A stretch of DNA of 33,201 nucleotides, taken from Balneolales bacterium (lineage in GTDB: Bacteria > Bacteroidota > Rhodothermia > Balneolales > Cyclonatronaceae). The notes beneath the pieces are model-generated. The model searched no databases, was not told where the DNA came from, and worked only from the letters and a program-made list of their open reading frames with translations. How positions within the stretch are numbered: the first letter of the stretch is position 1; each line of letters opens with the position of its first letter. Below are positions 16,982 through 23,874 of this stretch, in pieces. The position numbers were made by a program, and so were the translations under genes. The DNA lies in assembly GCA_020832405.1 (NCBI GenBank), contig JAFIET010000042.1, positions 1 through 33,201 on the forward strand, written 5' to 3'.

Positions 16982-19900
16982 TTAGTCGGGCATCTCCACA
17001 CCCTGTTCGCGCAGGTACTCAAAGGCGCGCTCAAGCTGCGGATCGCGCCCGTGCAGCAGGTCGTGGAAGGTGTTGCGGACTTCGATATGCGGCTCCACGC
17101 CGGTGAGCTCGAGGTTGTAGCCCTCAAAATCGAAGACGCCCCAGGCCGGCAGGCGGTGACTTGATCCGTCAACCAGGCCCATGGCCGTGGTGAAGATAAT
17201 CCAGCGGTAGGTTGGCATGCCGATAATAGTGCCGAGCCCAAGCTCGCGCAGGCCGGCGGTCGTCATTTCAGCATCGCTGAGGCTCTGCTCGTTGATGAGC
17301 ACCACAATCGGCTTGCCGGCCGGGGCAAAGTTCGGCTGACCGGCCATCGCGCCGCCGCGGAACTGCCAGTTGAGGTACGGCTGCCGGCTGAGGGCCTGAA
17401 TCACATCGTCATGCACGTTGCCTCCGCGGTTGTAGCGCAGATCGAGGATGAGGGCGTCGCGGTGCACAAACTGCCGCGCGAGCTCCTGCTGAAAGTGCTG
17501 CAGCGAGCCGCCGCCCATGTTGCGCATGTGGATGTAGGCCACGCGCTCGCCGGTCATTTCATCGACCTTGTGCTGACGGCTGCGCTCCCATTCGTCGTAA
17601 AACAGGTTCTGAAGCGAACCGGAGGTTTGGGTCTGAACCCGCACGGGGAATTCGGCCCGGCCGCGGGCAAATACGAGCTCAACTTCGCGGCTGCTTCCGG
17701 CATCGGCCACGCTGAAGTAGCGCTCGCGGTTGCCTTCGGTGTTCACGCGGGTGCCGTCAACGGCACGGAGCACATCACCCGGCTGAATCACGGCCTGCAA
17801 ACCTGCGAGGTCGGCATTGCTGCCGTGCAGGATGCGCTCCACCACGAAAGGATCGTCGTTGCGGAACAGGATGCCGGTTGCGAGGGTGCGCGCGTTGAGG
17901 AAGACATTTTCCTCATCGCCCCGGGAGTTGAAGCCCATGTGCGAGGAATTCAGCTCGCCGAGCATATCGTTGGTGAGGCGGCGCAGGTTGGCCCGGCTGT
18001 TGAGGTAGGGCAGAAACTGCGCGTAGTAGTCGCGTAGGGCGTGCCAGTCCTGACCATGAAAGCTTTCCTCATAAAAGTTCTCTTCGAGGTTGGCCCAGGT
18101 TTCGTGGAACATCTGCGCGAACTCGTCCATCAGGTTTCGGCTGAACCGGTGCTCGATGCGGATCCGCTCGGTGTTGTTCCGGTTGAGGTCGAGCTTGTGG
18201 ATGTTGCCGCTTACCAGCAGAAAATGACTGCCGCCTGCAGAGATGATGTCCGGCGCGGTGTTGCGGGTGCCTTCAATTTTGGTGGTTTCGGGCGATTTGA
18301 AAGGCTCGAGCACCGTCTTCCACAAATGGAAGCCCGTGCCGTCGTGGGCCGAGCCGTAAATGACGGTGTGCTTTTCGCCGTCAACCAGTACGAAGGGGCC
18401 GCTTTGGTTGCCGCTGTGCCGGGTGATCTGCTCCCAGCGCTCGTGCAGGCGCTCGGTTTGGATGCTCACCCGAACTTCGGTTTCATCGCTGCTGCTTTCG
18501 GTGAAGAGGGCGTCGAAGCGGTCGAGGCGCAGCGGCGGGTTCTGCGGACTGAGGGCCATGCGCCAGATATTGGCCGCGGTGTTGCCCCGGGGATAAACCG
18601 GCTGAATGCGGTCGGTCGAGAAGTAGATGAATTGGCCGTCGGCTGACCAAAAGGGCGTGTTCTCGGTTACGCCCGTGCGGGTGAGGTTCAGGGTTTCGCC
18701 GCTTTCCGGCTGATGCACGATGATGTCGCGCTCAAAGAAGCGGTAGGCGTTGAAGGCAATCCAGCGGCTGTCGGGCGACCAGCGGATGGTGCTGTTGCGG
18801 AAGGTCCAGAGCTCGTCTTCGAGCAGCAGCCGGCTGTCGTTGCGGGCCGGGTTGAAGAGCATCACTTCGGTTCGGCCGCGGAAGTAGGCGACACTTTGGG
18901 CATCGGGCGAAAGCCGCAGGTTGCGGTGATGCTGCGGCAGCTCGGTGAGCATCATCTCGGGGCCGTCGCCGGTCGCACGCATGCGGAACAGGTTGAAGTA
19001 GCCGCCCAGGGTTTGGGTGTAGAGCAGTTCGTCGTTGCTGAGCCAGATGACCTCGCCGGCCCGTTCGCCGCGAAGGGTGGGCATCTGCCGCACAAAGCGG
19101 CCTTCGGCATCTGACACAAAAAGCTCGCCCCGGGCAATGAAAGCCAGTTTTTTGCCGTCGGGCGACACATCGAAAGCGGTGATGTTGCCCGCGACCTCAA
19201 AAGAGACGGGCAGCCCGAGCGTAGGGGTACGGCCAAGCTGCACGGGAATGAGCCGGGCTTCCGCAGCGGCTACGTCGTAAGCCCACAGCTGATAATCCTT
19301 CTCGAACACCACAACACTGCCGTCGGCACTCACCTGCGGAAACCTGATCGAGCGGTCGAAATGGGTGAGCTGCTTCGGACCGTTTTCGGTGAGGCGGAAC
19401 AGGTTGTACTCGCCGTTGGCCTCGTCGGAGGTGTAGTACACCACGCCGTTCTGATCGATGGTCGGCCACATGTTTTTTCCGTCGTGCACGGTGTGCTCCG
19501 CGAAAACATCTGTTTCGGGATTGTAGGAGCGGATCACGGGATTGAAGGGGCCGCGGTAGCGCTTGCGCTCATAGAAGCGGAAACTCTCCCAGGTATCCGT
19601 AAAGAAGAAATCGCCGGTTTGGGGATGCTGCGCCACATCGTGCGGGAGGTTGAAAAAGTGGCTGTTCATGAGGCGGCGCGGGGTATCGCCGGTGATGCTG
19701 ACCTCCCAGGCGTCTATATAATTGTAGCGGTCGGATGAAAATCGGACCTGCCCGGAATCCCAGGACCAGGAATTGACGAGATTGGAGCCGTCGTGCCAGG
19801 TGAGGCGGCGCACATCACCGCCGGCTACGGGCTTCAGGTACACGCTTGTGTTGCCGTCGAGCTCGGCGGAGAAAGCAAGCCAACGGCCGTCAGGCGAAAA

Positions 19901-20239
19901 CCGGGGATGGGTTTCTTCGCCGGGCATGCCCGTGAGCCGGACCGCCATGCCGCCGCTCACCGGCACCTGCCACAGATCGCCCTCGAAACTGAACACCACG
20001 GTTTGTCCGTCAGGCGAGGGTGCGGGATGCGTGAGGAAAAAGACCTCCGGTGCCGCTGAGGGGCCGGGTTCAGGGGCGGTCATCAGGCCGGCGGGCAGCG
20101 CGACCGCAGGAGGCCCCGGAGCGGCACCGAGCACGACAGACGGCATCCCCCAACACAAAAAAACAAGGCCGGCCGCGAGCAGGCAGGCCGGTACTGAAAA
20201 ACGAAACCACTGATGGAGGTACAGAAAAGGCATCTTCAT
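16982..20239 (-). CDS. Tricorn-like S41 protease, secreted
   Basis: This 1085-aa protein resembles the tricorn protease core. A signal peptide or anchor (about 12-39) points to export, unlike the cytosolic archaeal enzyme. Next come WD40/TolB-like beta-propeller repeats (about 60-640) with recurrent PSPDGQ, FSPDGRWLAFS and SPDGKKLAF blades. A helical linker, a PDZ domain (about 800-880) and an S41 catalytic domain follow. Catalytic residues can be matched to tricorn: Ser766-His767 (LNSSHMGF), nucleophile Ser988 (SLSDAEMTTAGLRELGLG) and Glu1044 (ELTGV). It probably degrades peptides in the periplasm, with the symporter downstream. The stop codon is TAA and the gene is intact. Homologues in this phylum are common and multi-copy. 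Confidence 0.93.
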   Translation of the reverse strand: MKMPFLYLHQWFRFSVPACLLAAGLVFLCWGMPSVVLGAAPGPPAVALPAGLMTAPEPGPSAAPEVFFLTHPAPSPDGQTVVFSFEGDLWQVPVSGGMAVRLTGMPGEETHPRFSPDGRWLAFSAELDGNTSVYLKPVAGGDVRRLTWHDGSNLVNSWSWDSGQVRFSSDRYNYIDAWEVSITGDTPRRLMNSHFFNLPHDVAQHPQTGDFFFTDTWESFRFYERKRYRGPFNPVIRSYNPETDVFAEHTVHDGKNMWPTIDQNGVVYYTSDEANGEYNLFRLTENGPKQLTHFDRSIRFPQVSADGSVVVFEKDYQLWAYDVAAAEARLIPVQLGRTPTLGLPVSFEVAGNITAFDVSPDGKKLAFIARGELFVSDAEGRFVRQMPTLRGERAGEVIWLSNDELLYTQTLGGYFNLFRMRATGDGPEMMLTELPQHHRNLRLSPDAQSVAYFRGRTEVMLFNPARNDSRLLLEDELWTFRNSTIRWSPDSRWIAFNAYRFFERDIIVHQPESGETLNLTRTGVTENTPFWSADGQFIYFSTDRIQPVYPRGNTAANIWRMALSPQNPPLRLDRFDALFTESSSDETEVRVSIQTERLHERWEQITRHSGNQSGPFVLVDGEKHTVIYGSAHDGTGFHLWKTVLEPFKSPETTKIEGTRNTAPDIISAGGSHFLLVSGNIHKLDLNRNNTERIRIEHRFSRNLMDEFAQMFHETWANLEENFYEESFHGQDWHALRDYYAQFLPYLNSRANLRRLTNDMLGELNSSHMGFNSRGDEENVFLNARTLATGILFRNDDPFVVERILHGSNADLAGLQAVIQPGDVLRAVDGTRVNTEGNRERYFSVADAGSSREVELVFARGRAEFPVRVQTQTSGSLQNLFYDEWERSRQHKVDEMTGERVAYIHMRNMGGGSLQHFQQELARQFVHRDALILDLRYNRGGNVHDDVIQALSRQPYLNWQFRGGAMAGQPNFAPAGKPIVVLINEQSLSDAEMTTAGLRELGLGTIIGMPTYRWIIFTTAMGLVDGSSHRLPAWGVFDFEGYNLELTGVEPHIEVRNTFHDLLHGRDPQLERAFEYLREQGVEMPD

Positions 20240-20429
20240 GGCGGATCAGGTTTGGAATGATGAACAGGTTGCGGGTCGGAATTTGTAAAAGGAAGAGAAT
20301 AGGAAATTTCGGGCAGGAAAGGAACAGCCTTTCGGGGCAGGCGCGGGAGAATGGCACGCGGATGACGCGAATCTTCGAACGCGGATTTACGCGGTTTTTT
20401 TTGGGGTGATTATTTTGACACTCCGGATT

Positions 20430-20460
20430 CTTGCCCTCACTGCAAAAAAGTACTACTTTG
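20430..20460 (+). promoter_or_regulatory. Possible promoter of the toxin-antitoxin operon
   Basis: TTG at 20431-20433 is followed 19-20 nt later by TACTTTG (20454-20460), close to the Bacteroidota -7 element TAnnTTTG but one base short. The antitoxin ATG is at 20469, so the leader would be very short or absent. This is a weak match. Confidence 0.25.
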
Positions 20461-20468
20461 AAAGCACT

Positions 20469-20726
20469 ATGAAAACAGAAGTTGCTACATCACTCGAGCA
20501 TCAGGCAGCCAAACTCCTTAAAGAACTCAGGGAAGATAAAGTGCCTGTTCTGATAACCGAACACGGAAAACCATCCGCGTATCTGGTGGATGCGGAGCAT
20601 TTTGAAGACTTACAACAAAGGCTAAAGCTGCTCGAGGGTCTTGCAAGGGGTGAAAAAGCCATACTCGAAGACAGGGTTGTATCGCATGATGAAGCAAAAA
20701 AACGCATGTCCCGATGGCTGGGGTAA
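20469..20726 (+). CDS. Type II antitoxin, Phd/YefM family
   Basis: This 85-aa antitoxin is of the Phd/YefM type. The N-terminal DNA-binding half is recognisable as VATSLEHQAAKLLKELREDKVPVLITEHGKPSAYLVDAEHF, with the family's conserved 'vlIT..GkP.AyLv' core near residues 27-42. The C-terminal half is charged and helical, as expected for a toxin-wrapping tail. The frame is open back to 20406, but the ATG at 20469 matches the family N-terminus. It overlaps the toxin gene by 13 nt, the usual coupling in such operons, and presumably autoregulates it. Its base composition is more AT-rich than that of flanking genes and it sits between repeats, which suggests recent acquisition. Confidence 0.9.
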   Translation: MKTEVATSLEHQAAKLLKELREDKVPVLITEHGKPSAYLVDAEHFEDLQQRLKLLEGLARGEKAILEDRVVSHDEAKKRMSRWLG

Positions 20727-21016
20727 TCTGGACTGAACCAGCGCTTCAGGAGCTTGATGAAATAGCTGATTACATTTCGCTCGATAATCCGGACGCAGCT
20801 AAAAACCTCGTAAGGAACATTTTTAATCGTGTTGACTTACTGGAGATGTACCCATTGAGCGGAAAAATTCTTGTCGATTTTGAGACCTCTTTGTATCGGG
20901 AAATTGTGCTCCCACCCTGTCGCATTTTTTACCGGCCAACTGCTGAAAACGTATATATCATACATATAATCAGGGAAGAGCAACGGTTACATTTTGATAT
21001 TTTGGAATCAAGATAG
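20714..21016 (+). CDS. Type II toxin, RelE/ParE family
   Basis: This 100-aa protein of the RelE/ParE superfamily is paired with the preceding antitoxin. The N-terminus IWTEPALQELDEIADYISLDNPDAA is the ParE-like opening (first strand plus two helices). The C-terminal strands contain YREIVLPPCRIFYRP and VYIIHIIREEQ, the typical 'R-hyd-hyd-Y' and 'hyd-I-hyd-hyd-I-hR' core. Members poison either gyrase (ParE) or ribosome-bound mRNA (RelE). The sequence is nearer ParE-type in its opening, but the target cannot be fixed. It is complete, AT-richer than its neighbours, and ends 23 nt before the right copy of the 15-bp direct repeat. Confidence 0.9.
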   Translation: MAGVIWTEPALQELDEIADYISLDNPDAAKNLVRNIFNRVDLLEMYPLSGKILVDFETSLYREIVLPPCRIFYRPTAENVYIIHIIREEQRLHFDILESR

Positions 21017-21149
21017 AACTAAGGCACTCATCTCATACTTACGCGGTTTTTTTGAGTACCTTCTCTTTTTTGTCAGCAAAGAATAAAATCCGCGGGAATC
21101 CGGCAAAATCCGCCCGATCCGCGTGCCATCATCGCGGGCCATAAGCAAG

Positions 21150-22877
21150 CTACCGGAATGAGCGGTGGCCTTTTTGCGGAGTGCGGTCTGCGGTTAATTT
21201 TTCTTCGGCGAGGCGCTCCACATCGCGCAGGGTGCCGGCATCGGCGGGGCTCAGATCCCAGCGGATGGCCCTGAAGCGCGGGAACCGCAGCGTGTAGCCG
21301 GCCTTGGTGCGCCGGTTGACCTGTATGCCGTCGAATTCGAGCTCGACCACGATACCGGGTTTGAGGGAGTAGGTCGGGCCGAAGCGGTCGGCAATCAGCG
21401 GCTTCATGGCCTGATTGAGTTTTTTGAGCTCCTCATCGGTGTAGCCGCCGTAGGCTTTGCCGATGGGGATGAACTCTTCCTCGTAGCGCTCATCATCCCT
21501 TACAGAAACACCGAGGGTGAAATCGGAGTAGGTGCCGCCCCGTTTGCCGCTGCCCGCATGCGCATACATGATCACCGTATCGAGGGTGCCGCCGGGCTTC
21601 TTGACCTTCAGCCAGGACTTCCGGCGCTGCCCGTACTCATACGTGCTCTCCGGGTGCTTCAGCATCAGGCCTTCGTTGCCGTGCGCGAGGGCGCGGTCGA
21701 AGAAGCGCTCTACATCCCCCTCCTCCCCGATTTCAAACTGAATGCTGCGGCGGATGCCGTGCGCTTCGCACAGGGTTTCGAGCTGCTCGCGGCGCTGCTT
21801 CAGCGGCTCGCCAAAAAGCGGCTGTCCTTCCACAAAAAGCAGGTCGTAGGCAATGAACACGACAGGATGCTTTTTGAGGACGCCCGCGCCCGGCTTTTTC
21901 ACGCCCATGCGCTTTTGCAGCTCCTGAAACGGCTGAATGGTGTCGTCGCGGAACACGCAAAGCTCGCCGTCGAGCACGGCAGCGGGCATCATTTTGGCCG
22001 AAAAATCGGCCACGACCTCCGGAAAGCTTTCCGTGATTTCGTTGAGGTCGCGCGAAAACAGGGCGACCTTCCCTCCTTCGGCGTGCAGCTGACACCGCAT
22101 GCCGTCGAATTTCTCTTCGGCGAGGTAGGCGGTGAGGTCCTCTACCGCGCGGCTCTCAACCGGCGACGCCAGCATGAAGGCGATCGGCTGAAACAGGCGG
22201 AAGCGCGCCGAGCTCAGTTCATTGCGGCGGCACAAAACGGCGGTGCGGCCGAGGCTGCCGGTAATCATGCGGGCGTAGCGCACGTCTTCCGGGTCGTGGT
22301 CAAAAGCCGCGGCAAGGGCCGCGGTGATGCTGCGCGACTCAAAGCCGATCCGCAGACTGCCCTGCCCCATCACCCGGATAAAAAACTTGATTTCGGCGGG
22401 GGTCATTTGGGTCCAGGCTTCGGTGAGCAGCGCCTGCTTGCCCTCACGGCTGCGCTCTTTTTCCAGCCGCTGAAACAGGGCTTCGGTTTCGGTGAGGCTC
22501 AGCAGGGCCGGCTTGCGCTTTGCGATGGCGGCCGGGAGGTTTTCCATCAGCTTTTCGATGGCTTCGCTCGCGCTGCCGGTTGCGGTGCGGCAGGCGCGGA
22601 ACACGAGCTCGTAGTCGATGTCACAGAAACCCGCCGCGCAGACCGCTACGGTGCGGTGTCCGACCGAGGCCCGTTTGCCGGAAACCGACGAAAAGGCGCC
22701 TTCCCCGGCAAACTGCACGGCAAGGGCAACGTCTGCCTCATCGGGCAGGCTCCGCAGGTAATCCGCAAAAAGGCTGATTTTCCGGTTGTTGCCGCGGGTT
22801 TCGGCTATGCGCTGCATCACCTCACAAAAACGCCGGAAGGAAACGCCGTAGCTGCTTTGGAAGGCGGCATCAGTCAT
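21150..22877 (-). CDS. ATP-dependent DNA ligase (ligase-associated cluster type)
   Basis: This 575-aa ATP-dependent DNA ligase has an N-terminal DNA-binding domain (about 1-215), then adenylation and OB domains. The nucleotidyltransferase motifs are intact: motif I EKFDGMR with the adenylated Lys256, motif III VFIAYDLLF, motif IV EGLMLKHP and motif V WLKVKK. The start is decided by GGAGGG (22891-22886) placed 8 nt before the ATG at 22877, the only strong Shine-Dalgarno in this part of the window. That ATG overlaps the exonuclease stop by 8 nt (ATGACTGA), showing translational coupling. In many bacteria this ligase accompanies an MBL exonuclease, an Lhr-type DEXH helicase and a PdeM-like phosphoesterase. 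The last two are not in the window. Confidence 0.94.
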   Translation of the reverse strand: MTDAAFQSSYGVSFRRFCEVMQRIAETRGNNRKISLFADYLRSLPDEADVALAVQFAGEGAFSSVSGKRASVGHRTVAVCAAGFCDIDYELVFRACRTATGSASEAIEKLMENLPAAIAKRKPALLSLTETEALFQRLEKERSREGKQALLTEAWTQMTPAEIKFFIRVMGQGSLRIGFESRSITAALAAAFDHDPEDVRYARMITGSLGRTAVLCRRNELSSARFRLFQPIAFMLASPVESRAVEDLTAYLAEEKFDGMRCQLHAEGGKVALFSRDLNEITESFPEVVADFSAKMMPAAVLDGELCVFRDDTIQPFQELQKRMGVKKPGAGVLKKHPVVFIAYDLLFVEGQPLFGEPLKQRREQLETLCEAHGIRRSIQFEIGEEGDVERFFDRALAHGNEGLMLKHPESTYEYGQRRKSWLKVKKPGGTLDTVIMYAHAGSGKRGGTYSDFTLGVSVRDDERYEEEFIPIGKAYGGYTDEELKKLNQAMKPLIADRFGPTYSLKPGIVVELEFDGIQVNRRTKAGYTLRFPRFRAIRWDLSPADAGTLRDVERLAEEKLTADRTPQKGHRSFR

Positions 22878-23874
22878 CTTCATAGCCCTCCATCTCAAGC
22901 GGCTGACTCGCAATGCCGCGCTCCGCAAGGTAGTGCTGCACCACACGGGGGTTGGGGGTATGGGTGATGTACACCTTGCGCGGATTCAGCTTCTCGGTGA
23001 GCTCAAGCAGCTCGAAAAAGTCGATGTGGTCGGAGAGCGGGAAAAGCTTGTCGATGGTGAGCTGCACCCGGCGCGACTCATGCGTTGCCCAGCCCGAAAC
23101 GTAGGCCACGCGTTTGCGCCGGATGTTGCGCAGCATGGGCGCATCGAGCGAGGAAGAAGGCGTGATGAGGATGCGGCCGTCCTGCACGGTGGCGCGGTCG
23201 TACTTCTCCCAGTTACCGAGAGCTATGCCCGCCTCTTCGTACACCCTGCACAGCTCATAGCCCGCGCCGTGAATCTGCATCGGCACGCCCAGCGGCGCGA
23301 GTCCGTGCATGATTTCCTGCGCCTTGCCGAGGTTGTAGCCCAGAAAAACCGGCGTGTAGCCTTCCCCGAGGGCTTCGGAGGCGAAGCTGCGCATTTCGGC
23401 AAAAAGCTCCTCATGCGGCCGCCAGCGGTAAATCGGCAGCGGGAAGGTCGCCTCCGTGATAAAAAAATCAGTGGCCTCAGGGCAGGCGAAGCCTTCGGTT
23501 ACGGGCGAAGGCGGCGTTTTGTAGTCGCCGGTGTAGAGCACGCGGCCGGCATCGGTTTCGACCTCAATCATGGCCGAGCCGAGAATGTGGCCCGCCGGCC
23601 AGAGCGTTACCCGGCAGCGGTCGAATTCGACGGGCTGCCGAAATGCGAGCTCGGTGACATCCCCCTGAAAGCCGCGCACCCGCATGAGCCGGGCCGTTGC
23701 GGGGCTCGCGTACACGTGCATGTGCCGGTCGCGCGGCAGGTGATCGGCGTGCGCATGGCTCACAAAAATATGCCGGGCCACGTTCCCGGAAACATCCAGC
23801 CCGACCTCCGCATCCGGCAGGATGATGCCGTGCCCGCGCTCGAGCCGGTAATTCAGGTTGGTTTCTTTGCTCAT
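22870..23874 (-). CDS. Ligase-associated DNA exonuclease (MBL/beta-CASP fold)
   Basis: This 334-aa metallo-beta-lactamase-fold nuclease is of the type found beside ATP-dependent DNA ligases. The dinuclear metal site is visible as HAHADH (residues 40-45), the downstream AGHILGSAM histidine, Asp in YTGDYK and the late His in FPLSDHID. The beta-CASP insert occupies about 180-290, with the closing THTPN segment near 310. It is related to SNM1/Artemis-like DNA end-processing enzymes, so a role in DNA end trimming before ligation is likely, by family rather than by experiment. It is translationally coupled to the ligase gene downstream and starts 51 nt after the sugar transferase gene on the same strand. 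Confidence 0.93.
   Translation of the reverse strand: MSKETNLNYRLERGHGIILPDAEVGLDVSGNVARHIFVSHAHADHLPRDRHMHVYASPATARLMRVRGFQGDVTELAFRQPVEFDRCRVTLWPAGHILGSAMIEVETDAGRVLYTGDYKTPPSPVTEGFACPEATDFFITEATFPLPIYRWRPHEELFAEMRSFASEALGEGYTPVFLGYNLGKAQEIMHGLAPLGVPMQIHGAGYELCRVYEEAGIALGNWEKYDRATVQDGRILITPSSSLDAPMLRNIRRKRVAYVSGWATHESRRVQLTIDKLFPLSDHIDFFELLELTEKLNPRKVYITHTPNPRVVQHYLAERGIASQPLEMEGYEDD

What the first reader, a model, noticed from the sequence alone, without database searches (positions are those of the whole stretch)
20351..21129. Toxin-antitoxin operon nested in a palindromic repeat with a duplicated junction
The Phd/YefM-RelE/ParE pair is bracketed by a 15-bp direct repeat (TTACGCGGTTTTTTT at 20387 and 21039). 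It lies inside a larger inverted repeat whose outer ends (ATGGCACGCGGAT / ATCCGCGTGCCAT) match perfectly. The genes are AT-richer than the flanks. Joining the two direct-repeat copies would regenerate a plain palindromic intergenic repeat, so the operon looks like cargo of, or an insertion into, a repeat family without its own transposase. The arrangement is read directly from sequence; mobility is inference.
Basis: partly seen in the sequence, partly recalled or inferred. Interest (0 to 1): 0.65.

Follow-up and report, generated by a model that had tools for sequence, protein, structure and literature searches.

The report
Toxin-antitoxin operon between inverted genome repeats
An ordinary two-gene toxin-antitoxin operon sits between two oppositely facing copies of a short repeat that occurs about 94 times in this genome, and repeats of the same design flank small nuclease genes (the GxxExxY family) across bacteria and archaea, so the operon occupies the slot that such a nuclease gene usually fills.

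Summary
In detail: exact 15-bp direct repeats at 20387 and 21039, perfect 13-bp outer inverted ends, AT-rich Phd/YefM-ParE operon (44% GC against about 60%). The 'palindrome' is really two complete copies of an oriented, non-palindromic repeat of about 50 bp facing inward: left subtype B, right subtype A. The genome holds 94 copies of its outer end against 3 control matches. Only two close pairs face inward: this one, and one enclosing a single GxxExxY (PD-(D/E)XK) nuclease gene on another contig. A gene-less compact palindrome also exists, and a Fic gene lies between two same-direction copies. Following the lead, most GxxExxY genes sampled from many phyla sit inside inverted repeats of like design (52 of 80; control regions 0 of 66; ligase and ParE genes 0). 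ParE operons almost never do. Best reading: the repeats are arms and relics of GxxExxY-type elements, and the operon most likely lodged between two independent copies. True cargo remains possible. The 15-bp repeat is real (0 of 1000 shuffles) but its origin is unresolved.

The parts
20351..20401 (+). Left repeat copy, subtype B (51 bp: ATGGCACGCGGAT..CTTCGAACGCGGATTTACGCGGTTTTTTT)
   Evidence: profile match 38.9 bits, E=1.1e-10; alignment with other copies
20387..20401 (+). 15-bp direct repeat, left copy; it is the inner end of the left repeat
20469..20726 (+). Antitoxin, Phd/YefM family, 85 aa
   Evidence: PF02604 E=3.8e-13; TIGR01552 E=2.2e-11
20714..21016 (+). Toxin, ParE family, 100 aa; overlaps the antitoxin gene by 13 bp
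   Evidence: PF05016 E=1e-15
21039..21053 (+). 15-bp direct repeat, right copy; not part of a recognisable full repeat copy
21083..21129 (-). Right repeat copy, subtype A (47 bp), just past the ligase stop codon, with the outer extension (CATCATCGCGGGC) seen at other A copies
   Evidence: profile match 50.3 bits, E=2.9e-14
16982..20239 (-). Neighbouring gene, tricorn-like protease; 87% identical and syntenic in G005
21150..22946 (-). Neighbouring gene, ATP-dependent DNA ligase; 83% identical and syntenic in G005

Best explanation
The repeats are copies of a short oriented repeat (four CGGAT-like words about one helical turn apart) of the class that forms the inverted arms of GxxExxY nuclease elements; in this genome one such element survives (contig C117) together with about 90 scattered, mostly single or tandem arms. 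The Phd/YefM-ParE operon is an ordinary horizontally moving toxin-antitoxin module that came to lie in a repeat-rich intergenic gap, between a B copy and an oppositely oriented A copy. It most likely became bracketed passively (arms and operon accumulating in the same tolerant gap) rather than being moved by the repeats. Shown: the repeats, their number, their orientation statistics, the GxxExxY association. Inferred: that GxxExxY acts on the arms, and that the bracketing here is passive.
For: 94 copies of the outer end in 3.96 Mb, 3 in the reversed control. Close neighbouring copies (within 1.2 kb): 19 tandem, 2 inward, 0 outward; about 0.44 inward pairs within 800 bp are expected by chance. 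The two arms here are of different subtypes, whereas the C117 GxxExxY pair is B and B. GxxExxY genes lie in inverted repeats of like design: 52 of 80 loci reach 25 bits, 0 of 66 control regions; a second set 22 of 27, third set 8 of 12; DNA ligase 0 of 28, ParE 0 of 22 and 0 of 27. Two GxxExxY copies in one genome are 91% identical and the identity stops at the outer arm ends. Closest ParE relatives (62-72%) have no such repeats. Of about 90 ParE loci in GxxExxY-bearing genomes one lies between such repeats, and there between two separate compact palindromes.
Against: Only two inward pairs exist and both hold a small gene with nearly symmetric spacing (67 and 66 bp here), which looks like an element. 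The exact 15-bp direct repeat is not explained by passive bracketing. The GxxExxY-arm link is statistical; no activity is shown.
Confidence: 0.55

Rival explanations
1. The operon is true cargo: the two arms are the ends of one mobilisable cassette in which the toxin-antitoxin genes replaced the GxxExxY gene, moved in trans by the GxxExxY nuclease or its partners.
For: Geometry equals that of the C117 GxxExxY unit (inward arms, one small AT-rich transcription unit, about 67 bp from each arm); one of only two inward pairs; another gene family, PF05635, also sits in inverted repeats of periodic design (17 of 24), so the slot is not exclusive to GxxExxY.
Against: The arms are of different subtypes; no second copy; other ParE operons are almost never framed so.
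Confidence: 0.25
2. The operon inserted into the inner end of a pre-existing repeat (or into a compact palindrome such as the one at C41:14230) and duplicated 15 bp of target.
For: Exact 15-bp direct repeat beyond chance; a compact gene-less palindrome exists in the same genome.
Against: What follows the left 15-mer and the right 15-mer cannot be told apart as native or foreign; no transposase or integrase lies between; half of the 15-mer is a T run; the G005 locus gives no empty allele.
Confidence: 0.15
3. The second 15-mer is the remnant of a third, tandem arm left by an internal deletion, so the operon is bracketed by direct copies as Fic is in C141.
For: Tandem same-direction copies are the rule in this genome (19 of 21 close pairs); C141 shows a gene between two same-direction B copies.
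Against: No arm similarity remains beside the right 15-mer (score 5.0 against a shuffled mean of 5.3).
Confidence: 0.15

Closest known systems
REPIN/RAYT system (PLoS Genet 2011, PMC3116915)
   Same: Short extragenic repeats in high copy, as singles and as inverted pairs, with a small nuclease-type gene carrying the same repeats beside it
   Different: The partner gene is a PD-(D/E)XK (Cas4/RecB-like) GxxExxY protein, not a HUH tyrosine transposase; the repeat unit is a helically phased word array, not a short palindrome; GxxExxY occurs in up to 12 copies per genome, whereas RAYTs are described as single copy
[quoted passage not shown]
   Same: Non-autonomous inverted-repeat units; compact gene-less palindromes occur (C41:14230)
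   Different: No parent transposon with a known transposase; no target-site duplication seen at GxxExxY unit ends; most copies here are single arms
23S rRNA intervening sequences with S23/four-helix-bundle ORF (e.g. PMC4990558)
   Same: Small ORF inside terminal inverted repeats; PF05635 genes also sit in inverted repeats in the genomes sampled
   Different: The present locus is intergenic, not in rRNA, and codes Phd/YefM-ParE
Phd/YefM-ParE type II toxin-antitoxin operons
   Same: Both proteins match the curated families; overlapping two-gene operon
   Different: Only the genomic setting is unusual

Membership tests
Type II toxin-antitoxin, Phd/YefM with ParE | antitoxin and toxin match curated families and are adjacent or overlapping | tested here: met
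   PF02604 E=3.8e-13, PF05016 E=1e-15, 13-bp overlap
Type II toxin-antitoxin, Phd/YefM with ParE | toxin inhibits growth and antitoxin neutralises it | not testable with these tools
   needs expression assay
MITE | terminal inverted repeats | tested here: met
   inward arms, 13-bp perfect outer ends, but of two subtypes
MITE | several copies of the same unit with sharp ends | tested here: not met
   the operon between arms occurs once; only arms are multicopy
MITE | target-site duplication outside the arms | tested here: not met
   none visible outside 20351 and 21129; the 15-bp repeat lies inside
REPIN/RAYT | high-copy extragenic repeat occurring mainly as inverted pairs | tested here: not met
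   high copy yes (94), but close pairs are tandem 19, inward 2, one compact palindrome
REPIN/RAYT | associated RAYT (HUH tyrosine transposase) gene | not tested
   no RAYT search was made; the gene found between arms is GxxExxY
GxxExxY-type inverted-repeat unit | GxxExxY gene between inward arms | tested here: not met
   in the window the enclosed genes are Phd/YefM and ParE; C117 of the same genome meets it
GxxExxY-type inverted-repeat unit | arms made of RCNGAT-like words at about 10-11 bp spacing | tested here: met

The most novel reading that the evidence does not exclude
GxxExxY PD-(D/E)XK proteins are the enzymes of a widespread class of tiny inverted-repeat elements, whose arms populate genomes as dispersed repeats, and whose gene slot can take other small genes, here a toxin-antitoxin operon that rides as a passenger and may stabilise the element.
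Probability: 0.2. Interest if true: 0.8.

Novelty: new variant of a known kind. Interest (0 to 1): 0.5.

Why it matters
Short periodic repeats of this sort litter many bacterial genomes with no known origin. The finding ties one family in this genome, and like families across phyla, to one conserved uncharacterised nuclease family, which makes the question of what spreads them directly testable. The toxin-antitoxin operon would be a case of a passenger in such a unit, if it is one.

Tried and rejected
Orthologous empty site: only G005 keeps ligase and tricorn protease together; its 3.4-kb gap holds a different ParE operon, a DUF2335 gene and other repeats, so it is uninformative; in G001, G002 and G004 other genes follow the ligase. 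Repeat query in eight relatives: one chance match inside what looks like a coding region. Exact repeat pattern in 394 genomes of the phylum: 28 copies in G000, 6 in five others, at least one of them apparently inside a coding region. Native-continuation test of the two 15-mers and search for a third arm beside the right 15-mer: inconclusive or negative. ParE operons in 50 GxxExxY genomes as recurrent cargo: one case in about 90, between two separate palindromes. Sequence search of GxxExxY in the PDB: none. Literature on GxxExxY or PF13366 in the held library: incidental mentions only.

Full report
Check of the observation. The 15-bp direct repeat, the perfect 13-bp outer ends and the two genes are at the stated places. 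None of 1000 dinucleotide shuffles of the 779-bp segment contains an exact direct repeat as long. The genes are 43.8% GC against 60-61% around.

What the repeats are. A search of the window's own genome (G000, 3.96 Mb, 188 contigs) with the segment returned dozens of matches to its ends and one to its genes. Aligned, both ends are whole copies of an oriented repeat: ATGGCACGCGGAT-nnn-GCGGAT-...-CGGATTT-n-CGCGGATTTTTTT, four CGGAT words about 11 bp apart. There are two subtypes: A, 47 bp, and B, 51 bp with CTTCGAA or TTTCAAA. The left end is B, the right end is A. The outer 13-mer with up to one mismatch occurs 94 times, the reversed control pattern 3 times.

Pairs and cargo in this genome. Among neighbouring copies within 1.2 kb, 19 pairs are tandem, 2 face inward, none outward. 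The second inward pair, on C117, is B and B and encloses exactly one gene, a GxxExxY protein (TIGR04256, E=1.5e-38; PF13366, E=7.9e-40). On C41 a forward copy is followed after about 11 bp by an inverted one, a compact palindrome without a gene. On C141 a Fic gene lies between two same-direction B copies. Random placement of 94 copies would give about 0.44 inward pairs within 800 bp, so the window pair alone does not prove an element.

The GxxExxY association. Eighty GxxExxY relatives were fetched from Bacteroidota, Chloroflexota, Ignavibacteria, Planctomycetota, WOR-3, Desulfobacterota, ANME-1 archaea and others. Within 200 bp on each side, 52 of 80 show an inverted repeat of 25 bits or more, 0 of 66 regions 1 kb further out. 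Two more sets gave 22 of 27 and 8 of 12; DNA ligase genes 0 of 28, ParE genes 0 of 22 and 0 of 27. The arms are commonly of the form ATAGAACACGGATGACACGGATTTGACTGATAAACACTGAT, that is, RCNGAT words at 10-11 bp; other copies use other periodic words (CACGAAGGACACGAAG, CCACGAATGAACACGAAT). In one genome two copies are 91% identical over 465 bp and the identity stops at the outer arm ends..TGGACGCAGAT and ATCTGCGTCC.., which is how a duplicated mobile unit looks. The protein keeps D68, E78, K80 and a QxxxY motif; the AlphaFold2 model (pLDDT 91) best matches SSO0001 in the PDB (E=7e-4), which I know from memory as a Cas4-type nuclease. Genes of PF05635 (four-helix bundle, known from 23S rRNA intervening sequences, PMC4990558) also sit in inverted repeats (17 of 24).

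Does the toxin-antitoxin operon belong? In 50 GxxExxY-bearing genomes about 90 ParE loci were examined; one, in a Caldilineaceae genome, lies between repeats of this class, and there each side is a complete compact palindrome, so the operon is between two elements, not inside one. The closest relatives of the window toxin have no such repeats. With the different subtypes of the two arms this favours passive bracketing, at about 0.55. True cargo is kept at 0.25, insertion with a 15-bp target duplication and a truncated tandem arm at 0.15 each; the last two concern the origin of the 15-mer and overlap with the first two.

No empty site. The relative G005 has the same neighbours (ligase 83%, tricorn 87% identical) but 3.4 kb of other material between them: a different ParE operon, a DUF2335 gene, other repeats and a diverged ATGGAACGCGGAT end. 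It shows that the gap is a tolerant place for insertions, not that the operon jumped in.

Novelty. The operon is ordinary. The link between a conserved nuclease family and dispersed periodic repeats resembles the REPIN/RAYT pair (PMC3116915) with another enzyme class; I found no description of it in the held papers, which is not proof that none exists.

Noticed in passing
L097:1850-2404 (G000:C117:39850-40403): GxxExxY gene alone between two inward B-type repeats, the only complete GxxExxY gene of this genome; a fragment lies at G000:C86:49861-50004.
   Followed up: yes
L105-L184, L357-L386, L417-L428: GxxExxY genes across phyla sit inside inverted repeats built of short words at helical spacing; several different word families are used within one genome.
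   Followed up: partly
L387-L416: Four-helix-bundle genes (PF05635) also lie within inverted repeats of periodic words (17 of 24 at 25 bits or more), e.g. AGTCTGGAGTCTGGAGTCTGGAGTCC in L402.
   Followed up: partly
L066, L067, L068, L073, L074: Relatives of the window ParE operon in other genomes of the order are flanked by GTTAG/CTAAC-type sequences that look like integron attC sites; they may travel as integron cassettes.
   Followed up: no
L288:1372-2103: Toxin-first ParE operon in a Caldilineaceae genome between two complete compact palindromes of the GxxExxY arm class.
   Followed up: partly
L095:5890-6561 (G000:C87): Three tandem 303-bp units, each with a B-type repeat, running into the contig end; such repeats probably break the assembly (also C34 and C117 ends).
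   Followed up: no
L093:5780-9195 (G005): Ligase-tricorn gap of the relative holds a different ParE operon, a DUF2335 gene and roughly 350-bp tandem units with ATCCTGTCCATCCTGTAATCC repeats.
   Followed up: partly
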